In this document: positions 3 to 18,686 of the stretch, in pieces
How the letters are laid out: every line of letters starts with the position of its first letter
How positions within the stretch are numbered: position 1 is the stretch's first letter
NCBI RefSeq assembly: GCF_023161665.1
Contig: NZ_JALNTW010000001.1
Span: 603,544 to 667,543, forward strand
Origin: Shewanella sp. 1CM18E
Lineage (GTDB): Bacteria; Pseudomonadota; Gammaproteobacteria; Enterobacterales; Shewanellaceae
Length of the DNA stretch: 64,000 nt
Direction of reading: 5' to 3'
Notes under the pieces: model-generated
What the model saw: only the letters and a program-made list of their open reading frames with translations
The model's database searches: none
Told to the model about the DNA's origin: nothing
Position numbers and translations under genes: made by a program

Positions 3-518
3 ATTGGAAATCTAACTCAGTTGACCGAGCTTAAATTAGAAAGTAATCAACTAAGCGCAATCCCTGAGTCTATTGGAGACCTAACTCAGTTGACCAAGCT
101 TTCTTTGTTCAGCAATCAACTAAGTGCCCTCCCTGAGTCGATTGGTAACCTGACGTACCTAACCCAGCTAAAATTAGGCTGTAATCGGCTGAACGAAATC
201 CCTGAGTTTATTGGTAATCTGACTCAGTTGACCGAGCTTAATTTAAGCAGCAATCAACTAAGCGCAATCCCTGAGTCTATTAGAAATTTGACGCAACTAA
301 CCGAGCTTGATTTAAGCTATAACCGGCTGAACAAAATCCCTGAGTTTATTGGTAACCAGACTCAGTTAACCAAACTTAATTTATCTTATAACCAATTGCT
401 CGAAATTGCAGATTGTTTATGCGATCTTTCAAGCCTTACAGATTTATACTTGGAAGGTTACACAGGACATATACCTCAACAGTTGCTTGATAATTCTAAA
501 TTGACTATTCACCTATGA
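3..518 (+). CDS. Leucine-rich repeat protein, 5' end cut by window edge
   Basis: The reading frame is open to the left edge, so the gene begins outside the window; the visible part is 171 codons. It is almost entirely tandem 23-residue leucine-rich repeats of the pattern LTQLTxLxLxxNQLxxIPExI, about six units, closed by a degenerate cap (SSLTDLYLEG). This is the Ras-like/'SDS22-like' bacterial LRR type with IPE(S/F)IG turns, normally a protein-protein interaction scaffold. Its stop overlaps the start of the next gene (ATGA at 515-518), so the two are translationally coupled and probably functional partners. The missing N-terminus may hold an effector domain. Confidence 0.85.
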   Translation: MGNLTQLTELKLESNQLSAIPESIGDLTQLTKLSLFSNQLSALPESIGNLTYLTQLKLGCNRLNEIPEFIGNLTQLTELNLSSNQLSAIPESIRNLTQLTELDLSYNRLNKIPEFIGNQTQLTKLNLSYNQLLEIADCLCDLSSLTDLYLEGYTGHIPQQLLDNSKLTIHL

Positions 519-1849
519 GCGAACTTTTTAAACGTCTGAAACTAATCCAAACCTGTATTAGCTTGGAAGACCATTATTTAATCGAACTACAATTGCCAGT
601 GTTGCAAGCACTCTCTTGCAATGAACAGGTGCTTGAAATCATCAGTTTGTTAGAACAACAAGAGTACCTCGAATCACAACAATTGATTGAGGATTGGCTG
701 CATAAACAACAGTCCCTTGTTCTTTATGAGGACGACAAAACTGCAGCTATTCGTCTTGAGTTAAAAGTAGTTGAACAAAAGCTACAATCTTTACTGTTGC
801 AAAGAGACGAAGCCCATAATCGTCTGCAAGATTTTAACCGCCAATATCATCTTAAACTGGGACCAATTTTAAAACGAATCCTATCATTGCAAGAGGAAGT
901 CGCTGCTCAAAAATTAGCACTACAGCTAAATGAGTTTCGGCGGCTATTTGCAGAGTTTTCCACACGGAATAATCAGCTAGCAACATTGAAAACAGAACTT
1001 CAATCACTTGATGAACAACTATGCATTATAGACTTTTTAAGTGAAAACTACGGTCAGATACTAGCCCAGTATAATTCCAAGAAGCAAAGCGTTGAGATGC
1101 TAGAAGCTGAGCGAGAGACAATTCGTCAAACCATGCTTAGAGAGTTTAACCATGCCAAGCAGGCAGGCTCGTATAGCGACTACCAACAAGCCCATAATCA
1201 AGCCAATAGTTTTGAACAAGAAAACGAAGATATCACTCAGAAGATTGTTGAAGCCTTAACAAAAGACGAAATCAAGGCATTGAAAAAAGCTTATCGTAAA
1301 GCATCAATGCTTTGTCATCCTGACTTAGTTGGTGATGCTCTTAAAAAGCACGCTCACCAGCTCATGGTACAGTTAAACGAGGCTTATGCTAGCCAAAATC
1401 TGAGTAAAGTACTTGAGCTTCTTAGTCAAATAGAACGCGGTGAACGTTATGCTGCAGCGAGTAATTCACTTACAACGTTTGAGATGCTTTTTGCCAAATT
1501 AGAGGAATTAAAATATCGACATCAACAAGTCGGTGCAGAGCTAAACTCACTGCAGGAGTCCGACGAATACAAAACTATTTTAGACCTTGGTGAGTTCTGG
1601 GATAACTATTTTGAAACTCAGCACATAGCCTTATCAGAACTGGCGTTTCTCTTAGAAGAAGAGTTGGCAGGTATTTCGAGTGATAAAACGACAACTGCAT
1701 ATGAGTTATATGCATCTGATACCTACGACTCTAGTGTAACTCATGAGGTCACTGGATTTTGGCGCCGAGGACATTGGAGAGATGGTTACAGGGTTCGTGG
1801 TCATTGGGTGAAAGGTCACACTAGAGGTGACACAACACAATCTCTTTAG
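515..1849 (+). CDS. Coiled-coil protein with central J-domain
   Basis: This 444-residue protein has a long, Gln/Glu/Leu-rich helical N-terminal region (about 1-250, predicted coiled coil). A J-domain-like segment follows (about 245-305) with the diagnostic HPD motif at residues 268-270 inside KASMLCHPDL. J-domains stimulate Hsp70 ATPases, so this may be a co-chaperone, perhaps for the Hsp70 encoded 7 kb downstream. The C-terminus has a short Trp/Gly/His repeat (RRGHW...VRGHW) of unknown role. The start ATG overlaps the LRR stop. No signal peptide or membrane segment is visible. The J-domain call is good; the biological role and the link to the distant Hsp70 are inference. Confidence 0.8.
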   Translation: MSELFKRLKLIQTCISLEDHYLIELQLPVLQALSCNEQVLEIISLLEQQEYLESQQLIEDWLHKQQSLVLYEDDKTAAIRLELKVVEQKLQSLLLQRDEAHNRLQDFNRQYHLKLGPILKRILSLQEEVAAQKLALQLNEFRRLFAEFSTRNNQLATLKTELQSLDEQLCIIDFLSENYGQILAQYNSKKQSVEMLEAERETIRQTMLREFNHAKQAGSYSDYQQAHNQANSFEQENEDITQKIVEALTKDEIKALKKAYRKASMLCHPDLVGDALKKHAHQLMVQLNEAYASQNLSKVLELLSQIERGERYAAASNSLTTFEMLFAKLEELKYRHQQVGAELNSLQESDEYKTILDLGEFWDNYFETQHIALSELAFLLEEELAGISSDKTTTAYELYASDTYDSSVTHEVTGFWRRGHWRDGYRVRGHWVKGHTRGDTTQSL

Positions 1850-2267: not shown

Positions 2268-2909
2268 TTAAATAGCAGCAAAGAGCTCACTTAGTTTCTT
2301 ATAGCCGTAGTTTCTCTGATCAAAAGATGTTTGATTAGAAATATGCTTGCCAACAGGCCCTAGCATCGCCCACCCATCATCCTCTTCAACAGCCTCAATC
2401 GCCTGCCTTAGAAGGTTAATAAGCTTGGTATCACGTTTAATATTTTTAACTGGTTTAGGTAAATTTTCATCACCTTGTTCATATCCATCCAGATATAGGA
2501 ATCGAGAGCAGCTATTGACGAAAGCACTTGGTGCCTTACGCTCACCAAATCCAATCAAGAATTTGCCGTCAGCAAGTGCTCTAGTCACAAGGGGAGTAAA
2601 ATCACAACCAGAAGACACTAAACATATGATATCGACGTCTTTGGTGTAGAGGGTATCCATAGCATCGATAACCAGTGCTATATCTGTGGCATTCTTACCT
2701 TTTGTGAGATCGAATTGCTGAATGGGTTGTATGGCATACTCATGTAATACATCTTCCCAAGACTTGATATTAGGGCTTTTCCAGTTTCCATAAGCCTTAC
2801 GAATATTAACGACACCGTACTTGGCCAACTCTGACAGGATTACATCAATCTTTGCTGCTGGAGCGTTATCGGCATCAATAAAAAGAGCTATTTTTTCCTT
2901 ATCTTTCAT
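2268..2909 (-). CDS. NYN-domain protein with C-terminal LOTUS/OST-HTH domain
   Basis: This protein of about 213 residues belongs to the LabA/DUF88 group. The N-terminal two thirds form a PIN-like NYN fold, with acidic motifs LFIDADN, a central KNATDIALVIDAMD and a late SSGCDFTPLV that would place the Asp cluster of a metal-dependent nuclease. The C-terminal 50 residues (LINLLRQAIE...GYKKLSELF) fit an OST-HTH/LOTUS RNA-binding module. NYN-LOTUS proteins are regarded as RNA-processing or RNA-degrading enzymes. I chose the ATG at 2909 because an AAGGA motif lies six bases upstream; the ATG at 2915 would abut it directly. The gene stands alone between long spacers. Target and role are unknown. 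Confidence 0.85.
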   Translation of the reverse strand: MKDKEKIALFIDADNAPAAKIDVILSELAKYGVVNIRKAYGNWKSPNIKSWEDVLHEYAIQPIQQFDLTKGKNATDIALVIDAMDTLYTKDVDIICLVSSGCDFTPLVTRALADGKFLIGFGERKAPSAFVNSCSRFLYLDGYEQGDENLPKPVKNIKRDTKLINLLRQAIEAVEEDDGWAMLGPVGKHISNQTSFDQRNYGYKKLSELFAAI

Positions 2910-3365
2910 TCGCATTCCTTGCTTTAAATCCTAACTAAACATTCAACTCAAACAATATCACACTACTATATAGACAATGTTGATTTCAAAGAAAAATAGT
3001 CTTTTAGACTGTCACTATAAAAGCTCCGATTTTTCTAATGACTCAAACTTGTTCTGTCTTTTTTATGTTAGGCAATGAAAACTTCAACTAACAGTGGTCA
3101 ACTAATATCGCCCGCGCTCTTAGAATCTAGCCAGAACAAAGTATTTACTCTGTGCATATACGAAAATCATGACCTAAAGCTATAAAGTTCAAAAATCAGC
3201 ATGGAAAGGTCCTATGTATTAGTACAGCGGGACCTGGAGGCCTTCTGTCAGCGAAACTCGATCAATGAGGGTTATCTATCACACTCCAAATGATAGATCT
3301 CTGCAATTGCACCAAAGCGTTCAATTTGCTTTCGCACACTGTAGTTCTAGAAGTGATAGTTCTGC

Positions 3366-3412: not shown

Positions 3413-4315
3413 CTAATAAAAAATAGTCGCTAGCTCCTCACACAGCACCGTTCGGTGCACAATATTTCCTTTGAGTAGCTCAGCATCCTCCTGACTTAGT
3501 AACACCTGCCGCGTCTTCTTATCAAACCGTGTTGGCATCTCTTCATAGAGTTGGTTATGCAGCCTCTTTATGTCACTAAAGATTTGTAGCGACTGCGAGA
3601 ACAGCATGACCTTGCTGTAATAGCCATGCTTAAGGCCATACAACCACTTTAATAGGATGGTTTGTCTTGCGGCCTTAGTCTTGAATGAGTGCTCTATCTC
3701 AACCGCGGCGATGGTGCCATCAGGCTCTAACGCTATACCATCAACATTGCGCACATCATTGGATTTAAAAAGCCGCTTAAACTCAGGCTCGGTAACGAAT
3801 GAATACCAGTAGGGTTTAGCTATATTATCTTTCGTTTGATTGTGCACGCCTTTGAGCAAGACGTACTGCATCATAAGATCGTGCATTATGGTGTTTTGGT
3901 TGACTCGCAGGCTTGGCTCTCCGGTTCGAAAATACACCGCAACAGATAACAACTCTTCGGCGTATTTAGCCCCCGCATAATCGAGTACATATACTCGCCC
4001 ATCGATAGAACGATGAGTGATAACTAAGCTCAGCAATTTATCGCTGACAAGCTTGTTCAAATGCTCTAAAGCGAGCCGATGTGGAATGCCATAAAGCAAA
4101 CTGATAATCGTTGGTGATGTTAGACCGAAACGTGTAACGATTTTCATCGTTAATACACGTCTATCTTTACCAATCTGATTATTACTTGTTCCAGGTTGAT
4201 AGTGCATTGGCATAGAGATATAGGGTTGATATAACCGCACGACTTCAACAGCTATTTCACCCGCTATTTCGACTGTTTGATTTAGCCGTTGGTTTGTATT
4301 GTTTTGCTCATTCAT
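3413..4315 (-). CDS. Replication-relaxation (MobC-like) family protein, probable
   Basis: A protein of about 300 residues with an N-terminal helical stretch and a probable winged-helix segment (RFGLTSPTIISLLYGIPHRL). It continues into a core with HDLMMQYVLL and VDGIALEPDGTIAAVEIEHS, a pattern I associate with the plasmid replication-relaxation/MobC family that helps initiate plasmid replication or mobilisation. The acidic VEIE motif recalls restriction-endonuclease-like folds. The start is uncertain: an ATG at 4315 follows a weak GGAT, and longer starts reach 4351. The gene sits directly beside a dense hairpin array, which would fit an origin-type function. The family assignment is from memory of motif patterns and is moderate. 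Confidence 0.55.
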   Translation of the reverse strand: MNEQNNTNQRLNQTVEIAGEIAVEVVRLYQPYISMPMHYQPGTSNNQIGKDRRVLTMKIVTRFGLTSPTIISLLYGIPHRLALEHLNKLVSDKLLSLVITHRSIDGRVYVLDYAGAKYAEELLSVAVYFRTGEPSLRVNQNTIMHDLMMQYVLLKGVHNQTKDNIAKPYWYSFVTEPEFKRLFKSNDVRNVDGIALEPDGTIAAVEIEHSFKTKAARQTILLKWLYGLKHGYYSKVMLFSQSLQIFSDIKRLHNQLYEEMPTRFDKKTRQVLLSQEDAELLKGNIVHRTVLCEELATIFY

Positions 4316-4426
4316 CTTGATATCCGTTGTTAGGTTGAACATGGTTATCAAGAGGTAGAACCTTAAGACACAAACAATGCTGATTGAGGCAAAAAAGTGC
4401 TGATTTTTATTCCGAGATGCTTATTA

Positions 4427-6267: not shown

Positions 6268-7887
6268 ATGTTCGCTGTCCAAAAAAACCCCTTTCGAGTC
6301 ATTGGCGTCTTGTCTAATGCAAAAGAAAAAGAAATACACCGTCAAAAAGTAAAATTAAGTAAGTATGCAAGTGTCGGTAAAAATATACCTTCTGAGCATG
6401 ATTATACTTTTCTGACACCGATTGTTCGAACAGAGCAATCTGTTTCAGCAGCATTCTCAAGCATAGACCAAAGGCAAGACAAGCTTGAGTATTCTTTATT
6501 TTGGTTTGTGAACAACAACCAATTTGATGAAATTGCACTTAGTCATCTTGCAGAATCTGATACAGACAAAGCGATGTCTACTTGGAGCAAGGTAACTGAA
6601 AATAGAGCAGTTACAGCAAACAACATTTCAAGTCTAAATAACTTGTCGACCTTGCAACTAACCTCTGTTCTAGCTAGTGAGCACAAGTCTGGCATAGCAA
6701 ATAAACTTAAGCTGATTCAATCAGATGAATTTACAGCATTTGTAACAGCTGTTACTGATGAAACATTTGTAGTGGAAAAACGTCAGATCGCTGAAAAATT
6801 TATCAAGCATGTCATTAAGCTTCTGCGCACAGCTAACAAGACAGAAAATGATGTCGTTAGCTATTTTTCACAATGTGAACAATGGGTAACAGATTATGTA
6901 GCGCTAAGCTTTTGTGAGAACCTAATTTTTGATGTTGAACGTGCAATTGAAACAACTCAGAAAAAAAGGGAGCAAAGTGGTTCTGAGGCTTATGCGTTTG
7001 CACTATCACTACATAACAATGTTGATGGCGCAATCACTAAAATTTCAAACCTTCTTAGTCCATCAAGCATTAAATTCAAAACGATTTCAGACGCTGTAGC
7101 AAAAGAGATTATGCAATGTGATATTGATTACTTTAACGCAAATAATCAATTACGCGACATCTTTGATGAGTCGCTTGAGCTTCTAGGTTATGCGAAAAAA
7201 CTTTCCACTAGCGACAAAACAAGACGAGAAATCATTCAAAACATAGAAGATATGAAGCAGCGCAAAGAAAACCGCCGCCTAGGTAAATACTACGATGATA
7301 TCTATGAGGAGCTAGCAAATTTTAAAGATAGGTTTGCATCAGTAGAAAATGCAAGAGCTTTAATCAACGTATGCAAACCTAAATTGGCGAATTTACGCAG
7401 TGAAGGCGGTGCTACGAAAGAGTTTATTGAACTTAGCAGCCTAGTTGTAACAGTGGCATTAAATATGATGATAGCTCAAGTAAACTATGTTCAGAATGGA
7501 AAGCATACATCTGCAGCTATTAGAGAAGTTTTTCAACAGGCAGTAAATGCTATGACTGATCTCTACGACTTTGCAATGAATGAAGCAGTATGTGAAAGGT
7601 ATAACACAAATCACGACACCATTAGAAACCTCAATAAGCAGGCCGAACGCAATCAAGGCTGCTACATAGCTACTATGGCATACGGTGACTATGACCACCC
7701 GCAGGTCCTGCGATTACGTCAATTCAGAGATCAAACACTGGCGAAAACAAAGCTTGGGTGTACGTTTATTAAAGTCTATTACAGATACTCACCTCTCATG
7801 GTAGAAAAACTAAAAACGCATAAAAATATTAATAAACTGATTAAAACAGTTTTAGATAAACTAATTAAAATTTTGGACATAAAATGA
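6268..7887 (+). CDS. J-like protein with C-terminal CFI-box domain
   Basis: A 539-residue first gene of the chaperone operon. The N-terminus (residues 4-16, VQKNPFRVIGV, then helices with QKVKLSKYASVGK) has the 'NPFRVLG' opening of a degenerate J-domain-like family found next to Hsp70 genes. No HPD motif is present, so it probably cannot stimulate an Hsp70 in the classical way. The middle (about 90-455) is all helical. The last 75 residues form a CFI-box module: GCYIATMAYGDYDHPQV at about 464-480, then LRLRQFRDQTL, KVYYRYSPLMVEKLK and a basic hydrophobic end. CFI-box C-termini are thought to be targeting or processing signals. The stop overlaps the next start (ATGA). Confidence 0.8.
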   Translation: MFAVQKNPFRVIGVLSNAKEKEIHRQKVKLSKYASVGKNIPSEHDYTFLTPIVRTEQSVSAAFSSIDQRQDKLEYSLFWFVNNNQFDEIALSHLAESDTDKAMSTWSKVTENRAVTANNISSLNNLSTLQLTSVLASEHKSGIANKLKLIQSDEFTAFVTAVTDETFVVEKRQIAEKFIKHVIKLLRTANKTENDVVSYFSQCEQWVTDYVALSFCENLIFDVERAIETTQKKREQSGSEAYAFALSLHNNVDGAITKISNLLSPSSIKFKTISDAVAKEIMQCDIDYFNANNQLRDIFDESLELLGYAKKLSTSDKTRREIIQNIEDMKQRKENRRLGKYYDDIYEELANFKDRFASVENARALINVCKPKLANLRSEGGATKEFIELSSLVVTVALNMMIAQVNYVQNGKHTSAAIREVFQQAVNAMTDLYDFAMNEAVCERYNTNHDTIRNLNKQAERNQGCYIATMAYGDYDHPQVLRLRQFRDQTLAKTKLGCTFIKVYYRYSPLMVEKLKTHKNINKLIKTVLDKLIKILDIK

Positions 7888-9011
7888 AAAATCTAAGCAT
7901 TTTGCTTCTAACTCTATGTTCGTTGAGTGTATGGGCGACTGTTGACAAAACTCAGCTAACAGAGCTCGTAGCAGAACAATCCTTTGTACAAGAACAAAAA
8001 GCGATTAATGATATCGACGCAAGGCTGAATAGGATTGAATATTTTTTGGCGGCTTTGGAAGGACAAACTCAAGCTAACACGCAAAACATTAAAAATATTA
8101 AGCAAAAAATTGACGTGTCAGAGCTCGTTAATGTCAATTTAAATAAGTTAAACCGTCAATATACTGAGCAAGATACTCGCTCACGTGCATTACATAAACA
8201 GTTAGCACAACAAAATGCTTTCCTTGAAGATATGAAATCTACAATTTCAGCACTTAAAGACGAGCTATCACTGGCAGACCAAAAATTAGTTCTTTTTAAT
8301 CAAAAGGTAACTGATGGTGAAACCGCAATGGTTAAGCTAAATAAAGGGCTGTCTCTAAAAATACAAGAAGCCAATTCAACCACCAATGCTATGGTCAACA
8401 AAGTAGCGGATGGAACAACGAGTAAGTTCATATTAGTTGGTATTGGCTTCAGTATTGCCGTATTGGTTATCGGTGGCGTTATTTTTATCTTACGCCGTAG
8501 GATTGATTCAACTGGTGTACGCATGGAGCAAAAAATCCAATCTGCTAAAGCCTCCCTAGAAGAAGAAAGTCTTAGCTTAGATAATAAATTAATTGAAGTG
8601 CTTGAAAAGCAATTACTGTTAGCACAAGAAATAAAGCTCACTAAGGAAACTGCACAAGTTGTAAAAGATACAGAGCCAGAGGAGCCTGATCACTCACTTT
8701 CGCTCAAAGTAGCCGATGAAATTACGCGAATGCAAAAAAATATTTCACAAATGGATCCTAGTGTTAAAGGCATTAAGCCGTTAGTGAAAGGCCTTGAACG
8801 TATCCGCAAAAACTTTATGGCTAACGGCTATGAGATTATTGACTTGTTAAATAAGCCTTACGATGAACGAATGAATATGGATGTAATTAACTATGTTGAT
8901 GATCCTGAACTGGCTGACGATGAGAAAATCATTGTCAAAGTTGTTCGCCCTCAAGTTAACTTTAATGGCATGCTTATTCAGCGCGCTCAAGTCGATGTTG
9001 CAATTAATTAA
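7884..9011 (+). CDS. Membrane-anchored coiled-coil protein of the Hsp70 operon
   Basis: A 375-residue protein with a signal peptide (1-18, MKNLSILLLTLCSLSVWA) and an extracytoplasmic coiled coil (about 20-165, Gln/Lys/Asn-rich). A transmembrane helix follows at about 180-202 (FILVGIGFSIAVLVIGGVIF, then RRR), and a cytoplasmic part includes a second coiled coil (about 210-300) and a small C-terminal domain. The topology would let it sense something outside or anchor the cytoplasmic Hsp70/AAA machinery at the membrane. It overlaps the upstream gene by four bases and lies nine bases before the Hsp70 gene, so co-production is likely. No named family is recognised. Confidence 0.8.
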   Translation: MKNLSILLLTLCSLSVWATVDKTQLTELVAEQSFVQEQKAINDIDARLNRIEYFLAALEGQTQANTQNIKNIKQKIDVSELVNVNLNKLNRQYTEQDTRSRALHKQLAQQNAFLEDMKSTISALKDELSLADQKLVLFNQKVTDGETAMVKLNKGLSLKIQEANSTTNAMVNKVADGTTSKFILVGIGFSIAVLVIGGVIFILRRRIDSTGVRMEQKIQSAKASLEEESLSLDNKLIEVLEKQLLLAQEIKLTKETAQVVKDTEPEEPDHSLSLKVADEITRMQKNISQMDPSVKGIKPLVKGLERIRKNFMANGYEIIDLLNKPYDERMNMDVINYVDDPELADDEKIIVKVVRPQVNFNGMLIQRAQVDVAIN

Positions 9012-9020
9012 GAGATAGAT

Positions 9021-11522
9021 ATGAAACGTTTAAATATAGATTATGGTATTGATTTAGGTACTACTAACTCAGCTCTCGCGCGCATTGATAGTGGTGCTTT
9101 AACAATTATCAAATCCCTTGATGATCAACGTGACACTACACCATCAACAGTAGCTTACAACAAAAAAGGAGCACAACAGGTAGGAGCGTCGTCATCTCAA
9201 GTTTATCGCCAGGAATGCCTTAAAAGTATGAAGCGAGCTATTCCTTTTAATGCTTATATTGAGTTTAAGCGTACCATGGGCACAGATGAACGTTATGAAT
9301 CATCACATAAAGGAGAGAGCTTTTCATCTGAGCAATTATCAGCCGAAGTTTTAAAATACTTAAAAGGCTATGTGTCTGACGAAAAAATTGATGCTGCGGT
9401 AATCACTATACCAGCAGCTTATACCATGAATCAGATTGATGCAGTGCGCCGCGCAGCTGACCTTGCCGGTTTTAAATACATTGAGACGTTGCAGGAGCCT
9501 GTTGCTGCCGCAATGGCTTATGGTGTTGAAGGCAAGGGGAAAGACGGTTTTTGGCTGGTTTTTGACTTTGGTGGCGGCACATTCGACGCTGCCCTCGTAA
9601 AAGTCGAAGATGGTATTGTCAAAGTAATTGACTCATCGGGGGACAATCATTTAGGTGGTAAAGACTTAGACTTTGCAGTAGTAGATAAACTCATTATTCC
9701 TCATATTCAAGAAAATTTTGAAATTGATGAACTATTGTCAGACCCTAATGTCAGTTCAAATTTTCGTGCAGGCTTGAAGTTTTTCGCTGAACAGTTAAAA
9801 AACCAACTCTCTTTTAACGATGAATACGAGCTTTGTATCGATGCGGGTGATATCCGTGACGATGATGACGGCGAGGAGATTGACATCGATTTAACTGTTA
9901 CCCAAGCTACGCTTAGAGCCGTTGTTGAAACAGTGTATCAAAGAGCAATTGATCTGAGTTTAGATTTATTAAAGCGTAATAACTTAAGCGGTGAGCAACT
10001 GGCCTCATTAATTTTGGTAGGTGGCCCAACACTTTCACCAGTTTTGCGAGATATGGTCGGCGAACAAATTTGCGCACCAGATACCAGTGTTGACCCTATG
10101 ACTGTGGTAGCCAGAGGTGCAGCAATTTACGCTTCAACGGTGTCTCTACCCGAAGATATTGTCGATGCTAAACGTGACAGAACTAAAGTTCAATTAGGCG
10201 TTGATTATGAAGCCTCTAGCGTAGAGCTAACTGAGTTTATTACCTTAAAGGTTTTGACTAATAAAACAGAAGGTACAATTCCAGATCAAGTTTATGCCCA
10301 ACTGTCGCGCAATGATGGCGCATGGAAAAGCGATAAAGTTGAGATTGATGCTCGTGGCGAAGTCTGTGATGTAGAACTTGTGGATGGTAAAACAAACAGT
10401 TTTGATATTGCGCTATTTGATGGTGAAGGAAATCAAGTAGAGTGTGAGCCGACCTCTTTTAGTATTATTCAAGGTTCGGTACTTGGCAGCATGCCATTAC
10501 CGCTCCATTTTGGTGTTGAAATTTTAGATATTAGTAATGGTGACTTAGTCTTTTCAGCACTAAAGGGGCTTGAAAAAAATGCGACTCTGCCAGCTACAGG
10601 TATCTGTAAGAGAGAGTTAAAAACACAGAAAGATATTCGCCCAGGCATACAGGCAGACTTTATTAAGATCCCACTTTACCAAGGGGAGCATTACGCTGAG
10701 GGAAGCCGAGCTATCCATAATGAGCACGTGTACGACGTGCTTATTTCTGGCTCTGATTTACCTAAATTACTACCAGCAGGCAGTACCGTTGAGTTAATGG
10801 TTAGTGTTGATCGCAGTCAAAATATTAAAGTAGAGGCATATTTTTCTTATCTTGATTATACATATGAGATAGATCTTCCAACATCTGACGTGCAATCAAT
10901 CTCTACAGACGTGCTAGAGAAAGAGTTTGTAAAAGCCAGTTCAGTGATTAGCGAACTAGATGATTCAGCGAGTTTACATGCCCGTCTTGAAGAAGCTGAG
11001 CGCGAGTTAAATGCAAGCTCCGACTGTGTCGATGCAAAAATGAAAGCTCGTGATGAATTACGCTCAGTGCTTAAAGAAATTGATCGCTTAAATAAAAGCG
11101 AAGCATGGCCAAATATGGAACGTAAGCTTAAACACGAATTTAAACGCCTTGAAGATGCAAATAGCGATTTAGGTAACGAAGATACAACTGAGCACGTTGA
11201 TTCTATTCGCGATGAGTTATCTGATGTGCTTCAGTCACAAGATTTAAAGGCTGGTAAACAGCTTTTACAAACTATTAGCTCATTGTTCTTCCAACTGACT
11301 AAGCTTTACCAGTTTATGGGCTTTATTCGTGACTTTGATAATCACTTCAATGCATATCATTGGACAGATAAAGCTGAAGCTCGAGAACTAGTAAATCAAG
11401 CACTGGAACTAGTCGCTAGGCGCGCTGATGCTGATGAACTAGGCCCACTAGTCTTTAGTCTTTGTGATCTGTTACCAGAAACTGAGCGCTCTGAAATTGA
11501 TGATAGTGTACTTGCAGGATAA
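9021..11522 (+). CDS. Divergent Hsp70-family chaperone, long form
   Basis: This 833-residue Hsp70 relative is about 200 residues longer than DnaK. Nucleotide-binding motifs are intact: phosphate-1 IDLGTTNSA (9-17), connect/phosphate-2 FDFGGGTFD (181-189) and adenosine motif LVGGPTLSP (332-340). EPVAAAMAYG at 159-168 is also typical. After residue 375 the usual DnaK linker is replaced by a diverged beta-rich substrate domain. The C-terminal 220 residues are helical and acidic and lack the DnaK EEVD-like tail. It is a cytoplasmic ATP-dependent chaperone or switch. Partner candidates are the J-like proteins at 515 and 6268 and the AAA+ protein just downstream. Six bases separate it from the next gene. 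Confidence 0.9.
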   Translation: MKRLNIDYGIDLGTTNSALARIDSGALTIIKSLDDQRDTTPSTVAYNKKGAQQVGASSSQVYRQECLKSMKRAIPFNAYIEFKRTMGTDERYESSHKGESFSSEQLSAEVLKYLKGYVSDEKIDAAVITIPAAYTMNQIDAVRRAADLAGFKYIETLQEPVAAAMAYGVEGKGKDGFWLVFDFGGGTFDAALVKVEDGIVKVIDSSGDNHLGGKDLDFAVVDKLIIPHIQENFEIDELLSDPNVSSNFRAGLKFFAEQLKNQLSFNDEYELCIDAGDIRDDDDGEEIDIDLTVTQATLRAVVETVYQRAIDLSLDLLKRNNLSGEQLASLILVGGPTLSPVLRDMVGEQICAPDTSVDPMTVVARGAAIYASTVSLPEDIVDAKRDRTKVQLGVDYEASSVELTEFITLKVLTNKTEGTIPDQVYAQLSRNDGAWKSDKVEIDARGEVCDVELVDGKTNSFDIALFDGEGNQVECEPTSFSIIQGSVLGSMPLPLHFGVEILDISNGDLVFSALKGLEKNATLPATGICKRELKTQKDIRPGIQADFIKIPLYQGEHYAEGSRAIHNEHVYDVLISGSDLPKLLPAGSTVELMVSVDRSQNIKVEAYFSYLDYTYEIDLPTSDVQSISTDVLEKEFVKASSVISELDDSASLHARLEEAERELNASSDCVDAKMKARDELRSVLKEIDRLNKSEAWPNMERKLKHEFKRLEDANSDLGNEDTTEHVDSIRDELSDVLQSQDLKAGKQLLQTISSLFFQLTKLYQFMGFIRDFDNHFNAYHWTDKAEARELVNQALELVARRADADELGPLVFSLCDLLPETERSEIDDSVLAG

Positions 11523-11528
11523 ATCGGA

Positions 11529-13223
11529 ATGAGTAGCGACATCAAGCCGCTGCTAAGTAAAGGCCAACTTCTAGGCGATGCCTACGAAGTTGGTTTTTTA
11601 TTAAATCTAAGCAGATGTGCTCAGACATATCGGGTAAAAAACAAAGCTGGTGAAAGCTTTGTCTTACGTTTATTTAAACCTAATGAAAGTGCTATAGCTA
11701 ATTACTCTGCACAAGCGACATTAATGGAAGCTTCTGATTCTGCATTCCCTCCTAAGCTAATCAGCAAAGGGAAGCACAAGAGCAACGGGCAAAGTTTTCA
11801 TTTTATTATCCAAAAACATATTAGTGGAGAGTCGTTAGACGACCGCATTAATCGGTTATCGAATGTATCTTCCGCAACAGCGAAGCATGTCACTATAGCT
11901 ATTTTAAAAGGGCTTGAATCATTACATTCAGCTAGCCCCGCGATTATTTGTAATAACATTAATAGTAGCTCCATTATTATCGATATGGAATCTACAGAAA
12001 ATAGCTATCACCTAAGTAATTATGATAGAGCTCATGTTGAACAGGCCAATTTCAAAACTGAAATTGACCGCCATGAAATCCCTTACATGGCGACAGAAGC
12101 AATCCTAGGTAAAGGGACTCCGCAGAGCGACTTGTTCAGCGTTGGAGTCATTCTTTATCATTTGCTCTATGGTTCGCCCCCATGGAAAATAATGCTGCCA
12201 GAAGATATGTTTCTGCAGAAAGATATACAAACTATCGTCGCGAAAGCACGTGAAGTTGGTATCAGCGCCCCAGAAATAAACAGTATTTCTGGGAGCAATT
12301 TGTTTGATGTTGTAAATAAATCTCTTGCAGAAGATCCCTCTAAACGTTTCCAAACTGCAAACGAGTTTATTTTAGCACTAGAAGGCAAAGCTACATTTCA
12401 AACTAAAAACCTTAAAGCTTCTAAGCCCGCTAGCACTCCTACAACTTGGGGATTTGCAGCTATTGCAGGAATGGAGGCTTTAAAAGAAACCATTAAAACT
12501 GATGTAATTGATGCACTAAACGAGCGTGAAAAATACCAGCGTTATGGGTTAGATATCCCAAATGGAATGCTACTTTATGGGCCTCCTGGCTGTGGCAAAA
12601 CCTTTTTTGCAGAGCGAATGGCAGAAGAAGTGGGCTTTAGCTTATTTCACCTTAAGCCCTCAGATATTCAAAGTAAATGGGTCAACGCAACCCAAGGGAA
12701 TATCAAGAAGTTATTTGATAATGCTCGAGAAAATGCACCTTCGATTGTGTTTATTGACGAACTGGACGCAATAGTACCTAGACGCGATAACGAAAGTGTT
12801 AATCACATGAATACTAGTGCAGTTAATGAATTTCTCGCTCAGATGAACAACTGTGGTGCCGATGGAGTATTTATTGTGGGGGCAACCAACAAGCCTGAGT
12901 CAATAGACCCTGCAGTATTACGAACTGGACGAATCGATAAAAAGATATATATCCCGCTGCCAGATCATGATAGTCGAAAGAAGCTATTCGAAAAACTTCT
13001 TGGTGGACGACCTTTAAGTACAGATGTGGATATTTCAGAGTTAGCCTCTAGAACAGAAAGCTATGTATCGAGTGATATTAAATTTATTTGTGATGAAGCC
13101 GCCCGTGCAGCCTTAAAGAAAGATCTGAAAATTACACAGGATGACTTGATAAAGTCCATTAATAACAATACACCGTCAATCTCTCTCTCTGAACTAGCTA
13201 CATATTCAAGCTCAATTAACTAA
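11529..13223 (+). CDS. Pseudokinase-AAA+ ATPase fusion
   Basis: A 564-residue two-domain protein. Residues about 15-285 have the layout of a bacterial Ser/Thr kinase, but catalytic sites are lost. The VAIK lysine is Arg47 (VLRLF), the HRD loop reads IICNNINSSSI (139-149) and DFG reads SNYD (163-166). The C-lobe motif MATEAI and SDLFSVGVILYHLLYG remain. Residues about 305-564 form a classical AAA+ module with Walker A GPPGCGKT (351-358), Walker B VFIDELDA (407-414), sensor-1 GATNKP (451-456) and an LRTGRID arginine finger (464-470), resembling FtsH/Cdc48-type domains. The pseudokinase could dock substrates or partners and the AAA ring remodel them, like ClpB beside DnaK. Confidence 0.9.
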   Translation: MSSDIKPLLSKGQLLGDAYEVGFLLNLSRCAQTYRVKNKAGESFVLRLFKPNESAIANYSAQATLMEASDSAFPPKLISKGKHKSNGQSFHFIIQKHISGESLDDRINRLSNVSSATAKHVTIAILKGLESLHSASPAIICNNINSSSIIIDMESTENSYHLSNYDRAHVEQANFKTEIDRHEIPYMATEAILGKGTPQSDLFSVGVILYHLLYGSPPWKIMLPEDMFLQKDIQTIVAKAREVGISAPEINSISGSNLFDVVNKSLAEDPSKRFQTANEFILALEGKATFQTKNLKASKPASTPTTWGFAAIAGMEALKETIKTDVIDALNEREKYQRYGLDIPNGMLLYGPPGCGKTFFAERMAEEVGFSLFHLKPSDIQSKWVNATQGNIKKLFDNARENAPSIVFIDELDAIVPRRDNESVNHMNTSAVNEFLAQMNNCGADGVFIVGATNKPESIDPAVLRTGRIDKKIYIPLPDHDSRKKLFEKLLGGRPLSTDVDISELASRTESYVSSDIKFICDEAARAALKKDLKITQDDLIKSINNNTPSISLSELATYSSSIN

Positions 13224-13256
13224 ACATTTATTTTGCAATAATTTAAACGGATCAAA

Positions 13257-13613
13257 ATGATAAATAAATCAATTTTTTTATCGGCGGCTACCGCAGCATT
13301 AATCACTTTCATAATTCCTGCAGCAGCACAAACATATAAAGTACCACCGACATCGTCATCTTATGGTAGCGTGCCTGTTATATCAGACCTAAAAATGGAG
13401 GAATGTGTAAAACTGTATAACGAAGCGGAATGGCTTTATAAAAAGCTCAACTCCATGTATGTTGATCAATATAGCTCAGCATCTGTTGATGAGTACAATA
13501 CTCAAGTTAACCGACATTCTAAAATGATTAATCGGTTTAATTCTGAGTGCGCAGGTAAACAATCTCAGTCAGCTTACGAGGCTGCTCAGCGACTTAACAA
13601 CCAGCAACGATAA
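13257..13613 (+). CDS. Small exported protein, last gene of the Hsp70 operon
   Basis: A 118-residue protein beginning with a clear signal peptide (about 1-24, MINKSIFLSAATAALITFII, then AAAQ). The mature part is mostly helical and hydrophilic, with two cysteines (in KMEECVKLY and NSECAG) that could form a disulphide in the periplasm. It starts 33 bases after the AAA+ gene on the same strand and is followed by a hairpin, so it closes the operon. No family is recognised. It may be the periplasmic ligand of the membrane coiled-coil protein, but that is conjecture. Confidence 0.7.
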   Translation: MINKSIFLSAATAALITFIIPAAAQTYKVPPTSSSYGSVPVISDLKMEECVKLYNEAEWLYKKLNSMYVDQYSSASVDEYNTQVNRHSKMINRFNSECAGKQSQSAYEAAQRLNNQQR

Positions 13614-13809: not shown

Positions 13810-16662
13810 TTAATTTTCTGTATTTTTGCATTGATCGTCTTTTATACCGTAACCACTGCACCCCCAGAACTGACCAAATTTACCGCTCCTTAGTTTCATC
13901 GGCCGGCCGCAGCGACTGCAAATTTTGATTGATTCACCGCAGTTGCTATTGTTACAAATGCTAGCAGAACGCGTATCAATTGAAGGCGCTTTGCATTTAA
14001 GGCAAACTCTAGCCTTTCCAACCTGGCAACCAAGTCCTGTGCTACAGGAGTAAAACTCGCCAAATTGCCCCTTTATCAATCTAAGATACCCCCCTTCACA
14101 ATTAGGGCACTTAAAAATCTTACGATATTTTTCCTGGAAAGTTTTCGAAGCAATATTGAGCTCATACTTGGGAGCCAAGAGTTCTGCTACAAACTCTGAT
14201 GGCGCAGTCGGGTTAGCAATAATGTAAGACTTTCTCTTAGCTCGAGTAAGTCCAACATACATCAAACGCCGCTCTTCTGAGTGAGGGAAGCTATCAAGGG
14301 AAGGCAACAAAGACTCTACAATAGCTTCATCCCTATTTTCATTCGGAAAGCCACTACGCCCTTGGAAAAATCCAATTAGAATACAATAATCGGCCTCAAG
14401 ACCTTTAGATTTATGAAAGCTCCAAAACTGTATATTCTCTTTAAGTTTACTTTTCCTAAGTACAGACTGTGCCTCAGTCAGTAAATAGTTATAACGAGCG
14501 ATAATTGCAATTTCCCCAAAGGGATCATTAGCCCTAATTTTCTTAACTATTTCTTCAATGCGTTCATTAAGTCCATTATCTCTTCCTCCTTTATCATCAA
14601 GTAAATAGACCTGGGAATCTGCAACTTTTGTGTGAGTATCAATATGCTTCTTATACTGTTCAGGGTTCTCCATGATGAACTGTCCAGCAGTATTAGCGAT
14701 ACTGTTGTTATACCTGAACGTTTTTTGGAGTTTTGTCGACGAATATTGCCCAACCATTTCACCAAAACGCGTTGTTAATTCTAACTTCCCCCCAGAAAAA
14801 CGATAAATAGACTGCCAGTCATCACCTACGACTGTTAACGAAGGAGTCGGACCATTTAGAATTATTGACTCAATAAACTCCATTCGAGCTGCAGAGATAT
14901 CCTGGAATTCATCAACAAGCACATACTTCCATTCAGGAACAATTTCTTTATCATTGACAACCTGTATTGCCCTAATGATCATATCGTCGAAGTCAATCGC
15001 ATTTTGATGTTGAAGTTCCTCAACATACCCCTGATGAAGCGCATCCAGCAAGCCTGCATATTTAACAGATTGGTGTACCTTTGAGTTTTCAAATCTTTCG
15101 AGGATCTGGTTCTTTGAGAGCCGTTCAATCCTTATCGCCTGAAGTGCTTTTTTCATCAAGTCACTCCATGTTGATAATTGTTTTTGCTGGTTTAACTTTT
15201 CAAAAACTTCACTAGGGTGCAATGGATTACAGCGCACACCATGCTCAGCCAATTTATCTTTCAGACCAGTTAGTAACGTGTTTTCTTTCCACTCGTAATG
15301 ATAAGTTTCGATCATTGTTGTACCGCATTCAAGGTGCAAAGCACGCTTAGAATGCATTGACTCATTGTACTTTTTGGCGTCAATGTCTTGTCTCGTATTC
15401 CCCTGACGATCTACACCAAAATGCTCTAAATAAATATCAGCATCTTCGATAAAAAAGTCTGGTTTGTAATCAAAACCAGGCTCAATTCTACGCTTACTTA
15501 CAAACGGAGCCTCGTACTTATATTTGATTTGGTTCAAATATAAAAAGTTGGCTATTAACAGTTCTTGATAGCCTCTAACGCGTTCGTTGTTTAGCGTTCT
15601 AAATTCGTTATCCCTAACATAACATTCGTATTCAGCCTTTGTTTTAAAAGAGAATGGATCTAACGGTGGAGTGCTTAATTCAATAAGATCGAATACTCTT
15701 GATGGATCTGCTGCGATGTAGCTATAAATCCACTCCGTCACCCATTGCTTAAGCCTGAAGTCATCTTCAGTAAAAATACTCATGTGTGTTGGAACACCAG
15801 CATCGCGAAGAAATTTTCTTCCTAAGGCATGAAATGTTGAAATTTGAGGAGATGATTCAAGCCCTATGTTTCCTTTTGCAGCTTTCTCTGCAAGTCGCTC
15901 CTTTAATTCTTCAGCTGCAGCCTTGTTATATGCCAGAACTAATATCTCCGATGGCTTTGCTAACCCTCTATCAATAATATCTAAAGCTTTTGCCACCATT
16001 ACCGATGTTTTCCCCGTCCCAGCAGCAGCTAATACCATATTACGATCATTAGAACGCAAGACGCCTAATCGCTGCTCTAGAGTCAAAGGATTTGATTCAA
16101 CACAGTCGAAGAACTCTTTTCGCTTTCCTAACTGATATTCCTCATGGAAGGTTCTAAGGCTTTCAGCTTTAACAGGGTGAAACTCGACAATTTCTTTAAC
16201 TTTTTTTATTGTATCTGCACACAGATACTCTTCCCAAAGTTCAGCTTGTGGAGTGTAAGCGGTGTGTATCCAACAACATAAAGTAGCGACCTGATCTATA
16301 CGACTATCCCTAGGGTACTCTTTCAGAACAACTAAGTTGAACTCACTAAATGCTTGAGCTAAATCTTTCTCTATTCGCTCTGCAATCTCACTATTTAATA
16401 ATTTCAAAAATACATCTGATGTTGAGCTTTTCAAGAACCTAAACTTCGACGCTTTCTCTTTGGTATTTAAGGTGATCTCTCCACCAAAAAATGATTCTCT
16501 ATAGCTTGCAAAAGCATTGATACCTGCTAGCGAGCAGGCAGATACAACTTTGCCTTTAGCTTCGTATACTAAGGAAGCATTATCTAAAGAAATATTAGAG
16601 TAACCGAGTATTCTCCCCAATAGATTAAAGTGGAGTTTGGGTGCGTGTAAGACTTCGTTCAT
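13810..16662 (-). CDS. UvrD/Rep-family helicase (helicase IV-like) with zinc-finger C-terminus
   Basis: A 950-residue superfamily 1 helicase. The N-terminal 190 residues resemble the helicase IV accessory region. Walker A is AAAGTGKTS (212-220), motif II is VDEFQD, and a C-terminal UvrD motif (MYVGLTRAK) is present. An insertion at about 385-440 contains YKPDFFIED and IYLEHFG, recalling a PD-(D/E)XK nuclease-like core. The last 100 residues carry topoisomerase-type C4 zinc fingers (CPNCEGGYLRL, CSRCGRPMKLR with FGQFWGCSGY). Likely role: ATP-dependent DNA unwinding in repair or defence. E. coli HelD is 684 residues, so this is a longer relative. It is transcribed towards the Hsp70 operon and ends convergently with it. 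Confidence 0.88.
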   Translation of the reverse strand: MNEVLHAPKLHFNLLGRILGYSNISLDNASLVYEAKGKVVSACSLAGINAFASYRESFFGGEITLNTKEKASKFRFLKSSTSDVFLKLLNSEIAERIEKDLAQAFSEFNLVVLKEYPRDSRIDQVATLCCWIHTAYTPQAELWEEYLCADTIKKVKEIVEFHPVKAESLRTFHEEYQLGKRKEFFDCVESNPLTLEQRLGVLRSNDRNMVLAAAGTGKTSVMVAKALDIIDRGLAKPSEILVLAYNKAAAEELKERLAEKAAKGNIGLESSPQISTFHALGRKFLRDAGVPTHMSIFTEDDFRLKQWVTEWIYSYIAADPSRVFDLIELSTPPLDPFSFKTKAEYECYVRDNEFRTLNNERVRGYQELLIANFLYLNQIKYKYEAPFVSKRRIEPGFDYKPDFFIEDADIYLEHFGVDRQGNTRQDIDAKKYNESMHSKRALHLECGTTMIETYHYEWKENTLLTGLKDKLAEHGVRCNPLHPSEVFEKLNQQKQLSTWSDLMKKALQAIRIERLSKNQILERFENSKVHQSVKYAGLLDALHQGYVEELQHQNAIDFDDMIIRAIQVVNDKEIVPEWKYVLVDEFQDISAARMEFIESIILNGPTPSLTVVGDDWQSIYRFSGGKLELTTRFGEMVGQYSSTKLQKTFRYNNSIANTAGQFIMENPEQYKKHIDTHTKVADSQVYLLDDKGGRDNGLNERIEEIVKKIRANDPFGEIAIIARYNYLLTEAQSVLRKSKLKENIQFWSFHKSKGLEADYCILIGFFQGRSGFPNENRDEAIVESLLPSLDSFPHSEERRLMYVGLTRAKRKSYIIANPTAPSEFVAELLAPKYELNIASKTFQEKYRKIFKCPNCEGGYLRLIKGQFGEFYSCSTGLGCQVGKARVCLKCKAPSIDTRSASICNNSNCGESIKICSRCGRPMKLRSGKFGQFWGCSGYGIKDDQCKNTEN

Positions 16663-16890
16663 GTTAAGTTCTAGGAGTAAAAAAACTCGTGGATTTTATG
16701 CCTAATTTTATTTTTCAGCTAGAAGAAAATCATCACAAACATAATCAATTACAAAACCAGGACTAGTCCCAACTGCACCACATTAGTAGAGTAAAGTACT
16801 TGGTAAGTTTCTAGATTCAAGCCTTATCTAATAACAACCATGTTCTTTTAGCTTGCTCAATAAATAGATATTTTTATCTAGGTAATTTTA

Positions 16891-18438
16891 TTACTTCAAA
16901 AAATCCGGCATCGCCCCTTGCTGTCTTGACGAATCCAGCTTACTAACAGCCTCAAATCGAGTTCTATCCATTAAATGTGCATAACGTTTGGTGGTCTCTA
17001 TCTGCTTGTGATTGAGCAGCTGACTGACCATGTAAATATTGCCTGTTTGCATCATCACCTTTGACGCAAAGTCATGGCGTAAGTCATACAGCCTAAAGCT
17101 TTCTATCTTTGCTTCCTTAAGCAACTTAGTCCAAGGCTTCTTAATCGTTGTTAGCTGAAAGCTAGGATTGGTCGGTGATGGAAACAGCCAAGACTCAGAA
17201 CTTGCCTTAAAGTGTTTTGCTGACTCACTATGAACCCGATGTTTGCGCCACTCAACCAGCGTGGCATAGGCAAGTTCATTCAATGGAATAAAGTTCGAGA
17301 CACCGCGTTTATCTAATGATTTTCTGATACGGAAGAATCGGTTCTCGAGATCGACATCTTGCCAGCGGGAGTTGAATAGAGTCCCTGGTCTTATTCCGGT
17401 TTCTTTGAACAAAATAATGAAAGGCGTCACATGATCTGCAAACTGGCAATCAGCCAAATCGTCAGGCTTCTGTAACCTGCGTTTTTCTCTATGCTCAATG
17501 GTTCGAATTCGTTGATCGTGCTTCATAGAGTTGCGCTGATTAATTGCATCGTAAAGCCTCAGCTCTTCGCTATCTGATAAATAACGAATGACCTGATTAT
17601 CAACTTTGATTTTCGGCAAGGTGTACAGGTCATGCTCCCTGATAACGCCCTTTTCTTTTGCTAGCTGGATGCAGGCCCTTAGGGTGCAGATGGTCTCTTT
17701 TAGCGTTGAAGGCTTAACACTCCACAAGCTTTCCCCGGCTGCCAATTGCCTCTTGGTTAGCTTACGCTCTTTAGAACGCATCCACTCACGAACCACCTCT
17801 GCCGTTATGTCAGATACAGGGCTATCGAGATACTTCTTGAAGTTGCGCTCAATCACCCTAATTTTACTCATCACCGTTTTCGGGTTTTCATAGCGTTTTG
17901 TTTCAAGGTAATCAGAATATAAAAAGGTATGTAAAGTGGTATAACAACCATCCTGCTGTAGTCCCTTCTTTTGCTTTTCAATCAGCTTAATGCCTAGATT
18001 GTTGCCAGATTTAAGTTGAGTCGCAGCTTTAACTAGCTGGCTTATGTTGTCCTTTGATAAGTCGCCTACTTTGGTGGTATTTAACTTTGCTGTTAATGCA
18101 TCTCGATATCGTAAATACACAACTGCTGCCTTAGATTCATCTTTTGGGGCTAATGTTGCTTTAGTGAGTGTCAGTTGCGCCCTATAAAATCGAACCGATA
18201 AGCCCTTCAGCTCGGTGCAATTGAGTACAAAGTATTTTGTATCACCTTGCCACCATCGCTCAATTTCATTGTGAAAGTGATCAATCGACTCTGTTGGGAA
18301 TGAAGATTCAAGGTAAGACTTAAATGCTAAAAACTTTTGATTAGGCTTAGCGGTTTTCTTGTTAAGGCGTGTTGCCGCATAACAAAGAAATTGGTCGATA
18401 GATTTGTTCGAAAAGGAAATTTGTAGATTAGTATTCAT
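16891..18438 (-). CDS. Tyrosine recombinase (island integrase)
   Basis: A 515-residue site-specific integrase. The catalytic domain (about 280-500) shows the first Arg in KETGIRPGTLFNSRW and box II YDLRHDFAS (the usual first His is Tyr here, while Arg and the following His are kept). LLNHKQIETTKRYAHL then supplies His and the nucleophilic Tyr. The N-terminal half contains the SAM-like core-binding domain. It reads away from the attachment site at 18601-18647, which it most likely uses. No excisionase gene is visible nearby. The start at 18438 has only a weak ribosome site. It probably inserts the island into tRNA-Ile2(CAU). Confidence 0.92.
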   Translation of the reverse strand: MNTNLQISFSNKSIDQFLCYAATRLNKKTAKPNQKFLAFKSYLESSFPTESIDHFHNEIERWWQGDTKYFVLNCTELKGLSVRFYRAQLTLTKATLAPKDESKAAVVYLRYRDALTAKLNTTKVGDLSKDNISQLVKAATQLKSGNNLGIKLIEKQKKGLQQDGCYTTLHTFLYSDYLETKRYENPKTVMSKIRVIERNFKKYLDSPVSDITAEVVREWMRSKERKLTKRQLAAGESLWSVKPSTLKETICTLRACIQLAKEKGVIREHDLYTLPKIKVDNQVIRYLSDSEELRLYDAINQRNSMKHDQRIRTIEHREKRRLQKPDDLADCQFADHVTPFIILFKETGIRPGTLFNSRWQDVDLENRFFRIRKSLDKRGVSNFIPLNELAYATLVEWRKHRVHSESAKHFKASSESWLFPSPTNPSFQLTTIKKPWTKLLKEAKIESFRLYDLRHDFASKVMMQTGNIYMVSQLLNHKQIETTKRYAHLMDRTRFEAVSKLDSSRQQGAMPDFLK

Positions 18439-18600: not shown

Positions 18601-18647
18601 GACTCATAATCGTCAGGTCCACGGTTCAAGTCCGTGAGGGGCCACCA
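18601..18647 (+). other. Attachment site: 3' fragment of tRNA-Ile2(CAU)
   Basis: The 47 bases run from the anticodon loop (ACTCATAATC, anticodon CAT) through the variable region and T-arm (CACGG TTCAAGT CCGTG) to acceptor AGGGGCC and ACCA. This matches, from memory, the 3' half of the lysidine-type isoleucine tRNA of gammaproteobacteria. Sequence upstream of 18600 has no matching GGCCCCT acceptor or D-arm, so it is a non-functional duplicate left by island integration. Confidence 0.8.
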
Positions 18648-18660
18648 ATTTAAAACGAAG

Positions 18661-18686
18661 AAGCCTACCTTGTGTAGGCTTTTTTG
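18661..18686 (+). terminator. Original tRNA terminator
   Basis: Stem AAGCCTAC / GTAGGCTT with loop CTTGT is followed by a run of T. It lies 14 bases after the CCA end of the tRNA fragment, so the fragment keeps the native downstream context of the tRNA gene. Confidence 0.8.

What the first reader, a model, noticed from the sequence alone, without database searches (positions are those of the whole stretch)
6268..13613. Five-gene operon combining Hsp70, pseudokinase-AAA+, J-like/CFI-box and membrane coiled-coil proteins
Five same-strand genes with overlaps or gaps of at most 33 bases encode a degenerate J-like/CFI-box protein, a membrane coiled-coil protein and a long Hsp70. They are followed by a pseudokinase-AAA+ protein and a small exported protein. 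The set spans periplasm, membrane and cytoplasm and looks like a dedicated chaperone-disaggregase device on a mobile island. I know of no named system with this composition. A defence or stress role is inference from its location.
Basis: partly seen in the sequence, partly recalled or inferred. Interest (0 to 1): 0.8.

Follow-up and report, generated by a model that had tools for sequence, protein, structure and literature searches.

The report
Mobile membrane-spanning Hsp70–AAA+ unfolding machine
A mobile DNA island carries an operon, kept together in distantly related bacteria, for a dedicated Hsp70 protein-remodelling machine whose exchange factor is predicted to cross the inner membrane, and which likely pulls apart harmful protein assemblies, perhaps those of invading viruses.

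Summary
In detail: five same-strand genes at 6268-13613, gaps of at most 33 bases. Four are an operon core: J-like protein, coiled-coil membrane protein, Hsp70, kinase-like AAA+ ATPase. All 46 copies with the four genes complete are collinear, mostly in Bacteroidota, with a few in other phyla. The fifth gene here, a small exported protein, is not core; 40 of those 46 copies carry a TerB-family gene and this one does not.

New: the 'membrane coiled-coil protein' has a GrpE-fold head behind a transmembrane helix. The first 12 Foldseek hits in the PDB are GrpE, and profile comparison agrees. The J-like protein lacks HPD in 55 of 55 members. The AAA+ part keeps its motor motifs; the kinase motifs of this copy are degenerate.

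The operon lies in a 25.2 kb island at tRNA-Met with 65-bp exact direct repeats. It is rare (1 of 146 genomes of the host family), and its flanks match more defence families than control stretches (63 against 7, 103 proteins each). Best reading: a membrane-tethered Hsp70–AAA+ protein-dismantling device, likely for phage defence. Biochemistry and defence role are untested.

The parts
6268..7887 (+). gene 1 (g1): J-like protein without HPD, helical-repeat body, CFI-box C-terminus
   Evidence: CFI-box 5.3e-23; residues 5-30 vs 28 J domains, HHalign prob 88, E 2.7e-6, 0 of 40 column shuffles reach it; AF2 pLDDT 91, helices 8-12/20-36/56-65/69-76; HPD absent in 55 of 55
7884..9011 (+). gene 2 (g2): predicted signal peptide, long coiled coil (predicted periplasmic), one TM helix (about residues 182-200), GrpE-fold head (about 262-375, predicted cytoplasmic)
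9021..11522 (+). gene 3 (g3): Hsp70 with intact nucleotide-binding motifs and an extra segment of about 95 residues before the possible substrate-binding domain
   Evidence: PF00012 4.2e-60; motif columns nearly invariant in 49 sequences; PDB DnaK hits reach residue 396-399 at most in the rows shown; SBD-beta match weak, E 0.007
11529..13223 (+). gene 4 (g4): kinase-like domain (degenerate here) fused to a single CDC48-class AAA+ domain with Walker A/B, aromatic pore loop and Arg motif
13257..13613 (+). gene 5 (g5): small protein with predicted signal peptide; accessory, not core
   Evidence: homologues near the operon only in L008 and L019
13628..13659 (-). stem of 14 pairs between gene 5 and the convergent helicase gene; terminator-like on the - strand, so more likely the helicase gene's
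   Evidence: 5 such sites in the region, shuffles 5.4, so weak
18601..18665 (+). attR: 65-bp exact copy of the last 47 bases of tRNA-Met and 18 bases beyond; partner attL at G000:C11:596924-596988 (L160:12924-12988)
16891..18438 (-). tyrosine integrase at the right end of the island
   Evidence: PF00589 2.1e-21

Best explanation
The operon encodes an Hsp70 machine - J-like protein, GrpE-fold exchange factor predicted to span the inner membrane, Hsp70 and CDC48-class AAA+ ATPase - that likely couples an envelope signal to the unfolding of target proteins, probably phage ones. Proposed order of events: (1) the periplasmic coiled coil of g2, helped by a small exported partner (g5 here; a lipoprotein or SH3 protein elsewhere), would sense phage entry or envelope damage; (2) the change would pass through the membrane helix to the GrpE-like head and set ADP release from g3; (3) g1, perhaps held at the membrane by its CFI box, would bring substrate or g3 to the site without classical J stimulation; (4) g3 would hand the substrate to g4, whose AAA+ ring would thread and unfold it, the kinase-like domain acting as a nucleotide-sensing or docking switch. 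Shown: the genes, conserved order, GrpE fold match, motifs, island and attachment repeats, patchiness, defence genes in the flanks. Inferred: every activity, the topology and the phage role.
For: Operon conservation: 46 of 46 complete copies collinear; distance matrices of g1-g4 correlate, r 0.64-0.87, 0 of 999 permutations each. Test not anchored on g1: a g2 profile hit 6 of 395 genomes of one phylum sample (two of the six, G202 and G204, had supplied rows of the profile); the 5 hits of the g1 search of 296 are among these six; the other four of the six were read and hold g1-like, g2, g3 and g4, 3 in one run and 1 reordered over two contigs. GrpE fold. g4 and TerB in one ORF in L026. Motor motifs: Walker A Lys, Walker B Glu, pore aromatic and Arg 46 of 46. 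Carriers keep their own DnaK: 26 of 28 with a full-scale match. Defence: plasmid copy between SIR2/WD40 genes and BREX; 63 PADLOC families at E<=1e-30 in 103 flank proteins vs 7 in 103 control proteins; 8 of 10 large flank proteins scanned singly match BrxC, PglX, three type I REases, DpdF, PbeA or ThsB/PDC-S60 models. Mobility: 25.2 kb island with 65-bp repeats at tRNA-Met; 1 of 146 family genomes.
Confidence: 0.5

Rival explanations
1. It is an inner-membrane and envelope protein-quality device (heat, antimicrobial or envelope stress) that travels on islands but is not antiphage; g2 would report periplasmic misfolding and the AAA+ ring would pull damaged inner-membrane proteins.
For: g2 is predicted to span the membrane; accessory lipoproteins, SH3 proteins and small membrane DUF6804-like genes lie in or next to many copies; chaperone parts throughout.
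Against: Rare and patchy (6 of 395, 1 of 146) unlike core proteostasis; BREX and restriction genes nearby.
Confidence: 0.3
2. It is a sensor-effector device: the Hsp70-AAA+ part senses phage proteins and g1, through its CFI box or membrane helices, is the membrane-damaging effector (abortive infection).
For: 3 of 4 g1-like proteins of newly read loci end in a hydrophobic helix instead of a CFI box; of the 6 full-length g1 without CFI in the main set, 5 have a strong hydrophobic stretch, but in only 2 of these is it at the C-terminus.
Against: CFI boxes end many unrelated proteins, which fits a localisation tag better than a toxin; in L044 and L054 a hydrophobic g1 end and a separate short g1-profile ORF occur side by side, so the two ends are not simple substitutes.
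Confidence: 0.12
3. It serves the mobile element itself, for example conjugation or plasmid upkeep, by remodelling transfer or replication proteins.
For: Island with integrases and a MobC-like protein; a plasmid copy; MobB model matched by 2 of 103 flank proteins.
Against: No transfer gene was recognised among the recurrent flank clusters that were identified; the one integrase cluster covers 4 of 51 loci. Most clusters were not identified.
Confidence: 0.08

Closest known systems
DnaK-DnaJ-GrpE with ClpB (housekeeping bichaperone; recalled)
   Same: Hsp70 with intact nucleotide motifs, GrpE-fold partner, J-like partner and an AAA+ ATPase with unfoldase motifs
   Different: GrpE head is on a predicted transmembrane protein; J-like partner lacks HPD; AAA+ is a single CDC48-class domain with a kinase-like domain, not ClpB; all in one mobile operon
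GAP1-N2 GTPase-centred conflict systems with HSP70, GrpE and DnaJ-FNIII (PMC7159879, passages seen)
   Same: Hsp70 + GrpE + J partner in a predicted conflict system
   Different: no GTPase family in these five genes; AAA+ with kinase-like domain instead; membrane-spanning GrpE
CoCoNuT type IV restriction with Hsp70-like CnuD (PMC11090510, abstract and passages seen)
   Same: Hsp70-like protein and coiled coils, found with BREX and type I RM
   Different: no McrB/McrC, HEPN or TerY-P in these five genes; CnuD is described with degenerate Walker-A-like motifs and likely very weak ATP hydrolysis, whereas g3 motifs are intact
IetAS (AAA ATPase plus serine protease; partner recalled)
   Same: AAA+ of g4 gives its best PADLOC hit to IetA (2.9e-39)
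   Different: 121 bits against the NCBIfam cut-off of 510; no protease family in the operon; kinase-like domain added
bNACHT25, which needs host DnaJ to sense phage (PMC12169576, abstract and outline seen)
   Same: chaperone used in phage sensing
   Different: uses the host DnaJ; not a dedicated Hsp70 machine

Membership tests
Canonical DnaK/DnaJ/GrpE machine | Hsp70 nucleotide-binding domain with phosphate and adenosine motifs | tested here: met
Canonical DnaK/DnaJ/GrpE machine | GrpE-fold exchange factor | tested here: met
   (fold of the C-terminal 110 residues)
Canonical DnaK/DnaJ/GrpE machine | J domain with HPD | tested here: not met
   0 of 55 full-length g1 ORFs have HPD in the first 80 residues
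Canonical DnaK/DnaJ/GrpE machine | J-domain fold in g1 | tested here: inconclusive
   profile match to helices I-II only; fold searches do not list a J domain in the rows shown
Canonical DnaK/DnaJ/GrpE machine | GrpE speeds ADP release from its Hsp70 | not testable with these tools
   needs biochemistry
ClpB/Hsp104 disaggregase | two AAA domains of the Clp type with a middle domain | tested here: not met
   one AAA PF00004 with lid_3, CDC48/FtsH class
IetAS | IetA equivalog score and protease partner | tested here: not met
   121 of 510 bits; no protease family in the operon
CoCoNuT | McrB-type GTPase with McrC homologue | tested here: not met
   no such family in the five genes
GAP1-N2 GTPase-centred system | GAP1-N2 GTPase | tested here: not met
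   no GTPase family in the five genes
Active Ser/Thr kinase | beta3 Lys, HRD Asp and DFG Asp | tested here: not met
   this copy: Arg, Asn and Asn; in 46 sequences Lys 42, catalytic Asp 16 (Glu 23), DFG Asp 39
Substrate-threading AAA+ unfoldase | Walker A/B, aromatic pore loop, Arg motif | tested here: met
   46 of 46 for Walker A Lys, Walker B Glu, pore aromatic and Arg motif; activity itself not tested
Antiphage defence system | protection against phage | not testable with these tools
   only flank enrichment and patchy spread

The most novel reading that the evidence does not exclude
This is a new class of bacterial immune machine: a transmembrane GrpE works as a trans-envelope switch that reads an event outside the inner membrane and turns a private Hsp70-AAA+ unfoldase on incoming or assembling phage proteins, so that chaperone machinery, not a nuclease, is the weapon.
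Probability: 0.33. Interest if true: 0.92.

Novelty: new variant of a known kind. Interest (0 to 1): 0.76.

Why it matters
GrpE is, as I recall the field, treated as a soluble partner of Hsp70. A conserved transmembrane GrpE would mean that a signal from outside the inner membrane can set the Hsp70 cycle directly, which can be tested with purified parts. A mobile, defence-linked Hsp70-AAA+ operon would also suggest that cells use protein unfolding as a weapon or as a stress shield traded between phyla, and it gives the CFI box, for which no held paper was found, a functional setting.

Tried and rejected
Foldseek and VIA on the whole g1 model listed helical-repeat and other helical proteins; the J-like part is barely tested there. 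PDB profile search with whole g2 gave coiled-coil matches, no GrpE in the 60 rows shown of 206; the GrpE link came from the fold search and the C-terminal part. The Hsp70 substrate-domain match is weak: score 22.2 against a shuffled maximum of 20.5 for residues 480-640, 21.2 against 20.6 for 375-640. Viral contigs: none. Empty site: only 1 of 11 relatives has the right-hand core gene over its full length (73%), so no empty site was compared; the island limits rest on the repeats. A first idea that CFI box and C-terminal TM helix simply replace each other was weakened by the recount.

Literature: no held paper names the CFI box. Searches for a membrane-bound GrpE and for this gene set gave no listing that names it; most listed papers were seen as listings only. 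Most subscription papers are not held, so this is not proof of absence. The NCBIfam flank tally shows 25 of 152 families, mostly aminotransferase models.

Rows dropped: 250 flank proteins of 200 aa or more within 8 kb (49 loci); 150 nearest listed, 103 of them used (residue limit; some at contig ends left out); 103 of 167 control proteins used. Of 70 loci, 49 have g1+g2+g3 and 44 all four above strict scores. Five fall short: L014, L053 and L056 are cut at contig ends, L048 has a broken g3, in L067 no g4 was seen in the fetched stretch. The other 21 are L020 and L055 (cut) and 19 that match mainly the CFI-box end.
Full report
Observation. Library scans give CFI-box-CTERM at the end of gene 1, no family for gene 2, Hsp70 in gene 3, protein kinase plus AAA plus lid in gene 4, and nothing for gene 5. 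In PADLOC, genes 1, 3 and 5 match nothing at E<=0.01, gene 2 matches weakly (best 2.8e-4), and gene 4 resembles IetA, PD-T4-6 and others by single domains.

Conservation. A scan of one genome per species with a g1 alignment gave 70 loci. With iterated profiles over these, the window and a plasmid (72 loci), g2 was found in 52, g3 in 50, g4 in 46 and a TerB-family gene in 40. Of the 46 copies with all four core genes above strict scores (44 loci, the window and the plasmid), all 46 are collinear on one strand; g1/g2 spacing is most often -1 or -4 bases, and 40 of the 46 have TerB. Seven g1/g2 spacings over 100 bases have reasons: an upstream g1 paralogue scored higher in three (L035, L049, L052), a second short g1-profile ORF lies between in three (L016, L044, L054), and g2 is split in L026. 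Pairwise distances of g1, g2, g3 and g4 correlate with r 0.64 to 0.87, reached by 0 of 999 permutations. Record titles place the copies mainly in Bacteroidota, with Endozoicomonas, Aliidiomarina, a Paraglaciecola MAG, a Nitrosomonadaceae MAG, a Lachnospiraceae MAG, an Ignavibacteriae MAG and a Chloroherpeton MAG; MAG labels can be wrong.

A test that did not start from the CFI box: a g2 profile matched 6 of 395 genomes of one phylum sample that includes its centre G202. The five matches of the g1 search (5 of 296) are all among them. G202 and G204 had supplied profile rows; the other four were read out. Three have g1-like, g2, g3, g4 in one run (two with TerB), and one has g3, g4, TerB, g1 on one contig and g2 at the edge of another. 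So the set stays together even when the order changes. In these four, g1 has no CFI box; three of four end in a hydrophobic helix. In the main set 49 of 55 full-length g1 ORFs have the CFI box. Of the 6 without it, L043 and L044 have a C-terminal hydrophobic helix; L035, L049 and L052 have an internal one; L054 has a weaker Gly-rich hydrophobic end; and in L044 and L054 a short g1-profile ORF stands beside g1. A role of the CFI box in membrane placement is therefore a guess that fits part of the data. g4 and TerB share one reading frame in L026.

Gene 1. Residues 5-30 match J-domain helices I-II (E 2.7e-6, 0 of 40 shuffles) and the model has four short helices at its N-terminus in J order, but HPD is absent in 55 of 55. 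An HPD-bearing J protein lies nearby in 3 of 72 loci: window 515-1849, L017 and L033. It may supply the missing activity (idea only).

Genes 3 and 4. The Hsp70 nucleotide motifs are nearly invariant in 49 sequences. Solved DnaK sequences align up to about residue 399 in the rows shown; an extra segment of about 95 residues follows, then a stretch that weakly matches the DnaK substrate domain (E 0.007, score just above shuffles). Gene 4 has Walker A Lys, Walker B Glu, pore aromatic and Arg motif in 46 of 46 and its best matches among solved sequences are CDC48/p97. Its kinase-like domain has Arg, Asn and Asn at the three catalytic positions here, while the 46 sequences mostly keep the lysine (42) and DFG Asp (39), but only 16 have Asp in the catalytic loop.

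Setting. The host has two other full-length Hsp70 matches elsewhere; 28 of 28 other carriers searched (of 30 asked, 2 not held) have further Hsp70s, 26 with a full-scale DnaK match. The operon lies in an island of about 25.2 kb that starts in tRNA-Met downstream of rpoD and ends in a 65-bp exact copy of the tRNA 3' part and 18 bases beyond at window 18601-18665, next to an integrase. g1 is full length in only the host among 146 genomes of its family (one other has a CFI-box-only match), and g2 was found only in the host among 369 sampled of its class.

Link to defence. On Haliscomenobacter plasmid pHALHY02 the operon lies between SIR2/WD40 genes and a BREX cluster. Among 103 flank proteins from 45 loci (of 250 found) 63 PADLOC families match at E<=1e-30, against 7 families in 103 proteins from 16-kb stretches at distant coordinates on the operon's own contig in 20 carrier genomes. 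Scanned one by one, 8 of 10 large flank proteins match BrxC, PglX, type I restriction enzymes (three), DpdF, PbeA or ThsB/PDC-S60 models; 2 match nothing. Family counts exceed protein counts, since one protein can match many models; the flanks also hold metabolic genes.

Accessory genes. A family of nine, several with a lipoprotein-like N-terminus by eye (L013, L016, L017, L021, L032), lies between g3 and g4 in six. A family of seven (SH3_3 in the two scanned, L027 and L036) lies between g3 and g4 in two and upstream of g1 in five. A family of fifteen small membrane proteins (DUF6804 in the one scanned, L012) lies directly after TerB in thirteen. The g5 family is in three. By eye, the ends of the upstream g1 paralogues of L035, L049 and L052, after their membrane helix, resemble the end of the SH3 family (not tested). 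This repeated presence of envelope partners is why an envelope signal is favoured.

Mechanism and verdict. The parts make an Hsp70 cycle (without HPD) bound to the membrane and joined to a likely unfoldase. The best reading is a protein-dismantling device at the inner membrane, likely for phage defence; envelope proteostasis is the main rival. Nothing about activity is shown. The closest precedents seen are the GTPase-centred HSP70-GrpE-DnaJ conflict systems (PMC7159879, passages) and CoCoNuTs (PMC11090510, passages); both differ in defining parts. The BREX survey PMC12839542 was checked by terms only: no match for chaperone, DnaK, J domain, CFI or TerB.

Noticed in passing
window 21-1849: Leucine-rich-repeat protein (by eye) followed by a coiled-coil protein with an HPD-bearing J domain (254-292), on the same island as the HPD-less g1.
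   Followed up: partly
window 2268-2915 and 3413-4351: NYN ribonuclease-like protein with a LOTUS domain, and a MobC-like replication-relaxation protein, both island cargo.
   Followed up: no
window 13810-16662: Helicase IV/UvrD-like protein with a topoisomerase-type zinc ribbon, convergent with the operon.
   Followed up: no
L160:14365-15887 and 16799-18040: Integrase-like sequence in two frames and a transposase-like protein (by eye) at the left end of the island.
   Followed up: no
L035, L043, L049, L052, upstream of g1: Tandem, longer g1 paralogues (804-1103 aa) without CFI box; membrane helices internal in three and C-terminal in L043.
   Followed up: partly
L016, L044, L054, between g1 and g2: A short separate ORF (202-254 aa) that matches the g1 profile next to a full g1.
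   Followed up: partly
L010, L026, L038, L048: A second Hsp70 directly after g3 (690-818 aa), as if the Hsp70 were duplicated in some copies.
   Followed up: no
L026:17255-19606: g4 and the TerB-family protein in one reading frame.
   Followed up: no
L012:8556-8855 and 14 other loci: Small membrane protein family (DUF6804), directly after TerB in 13 of 15 loci.
   Followed up: partly
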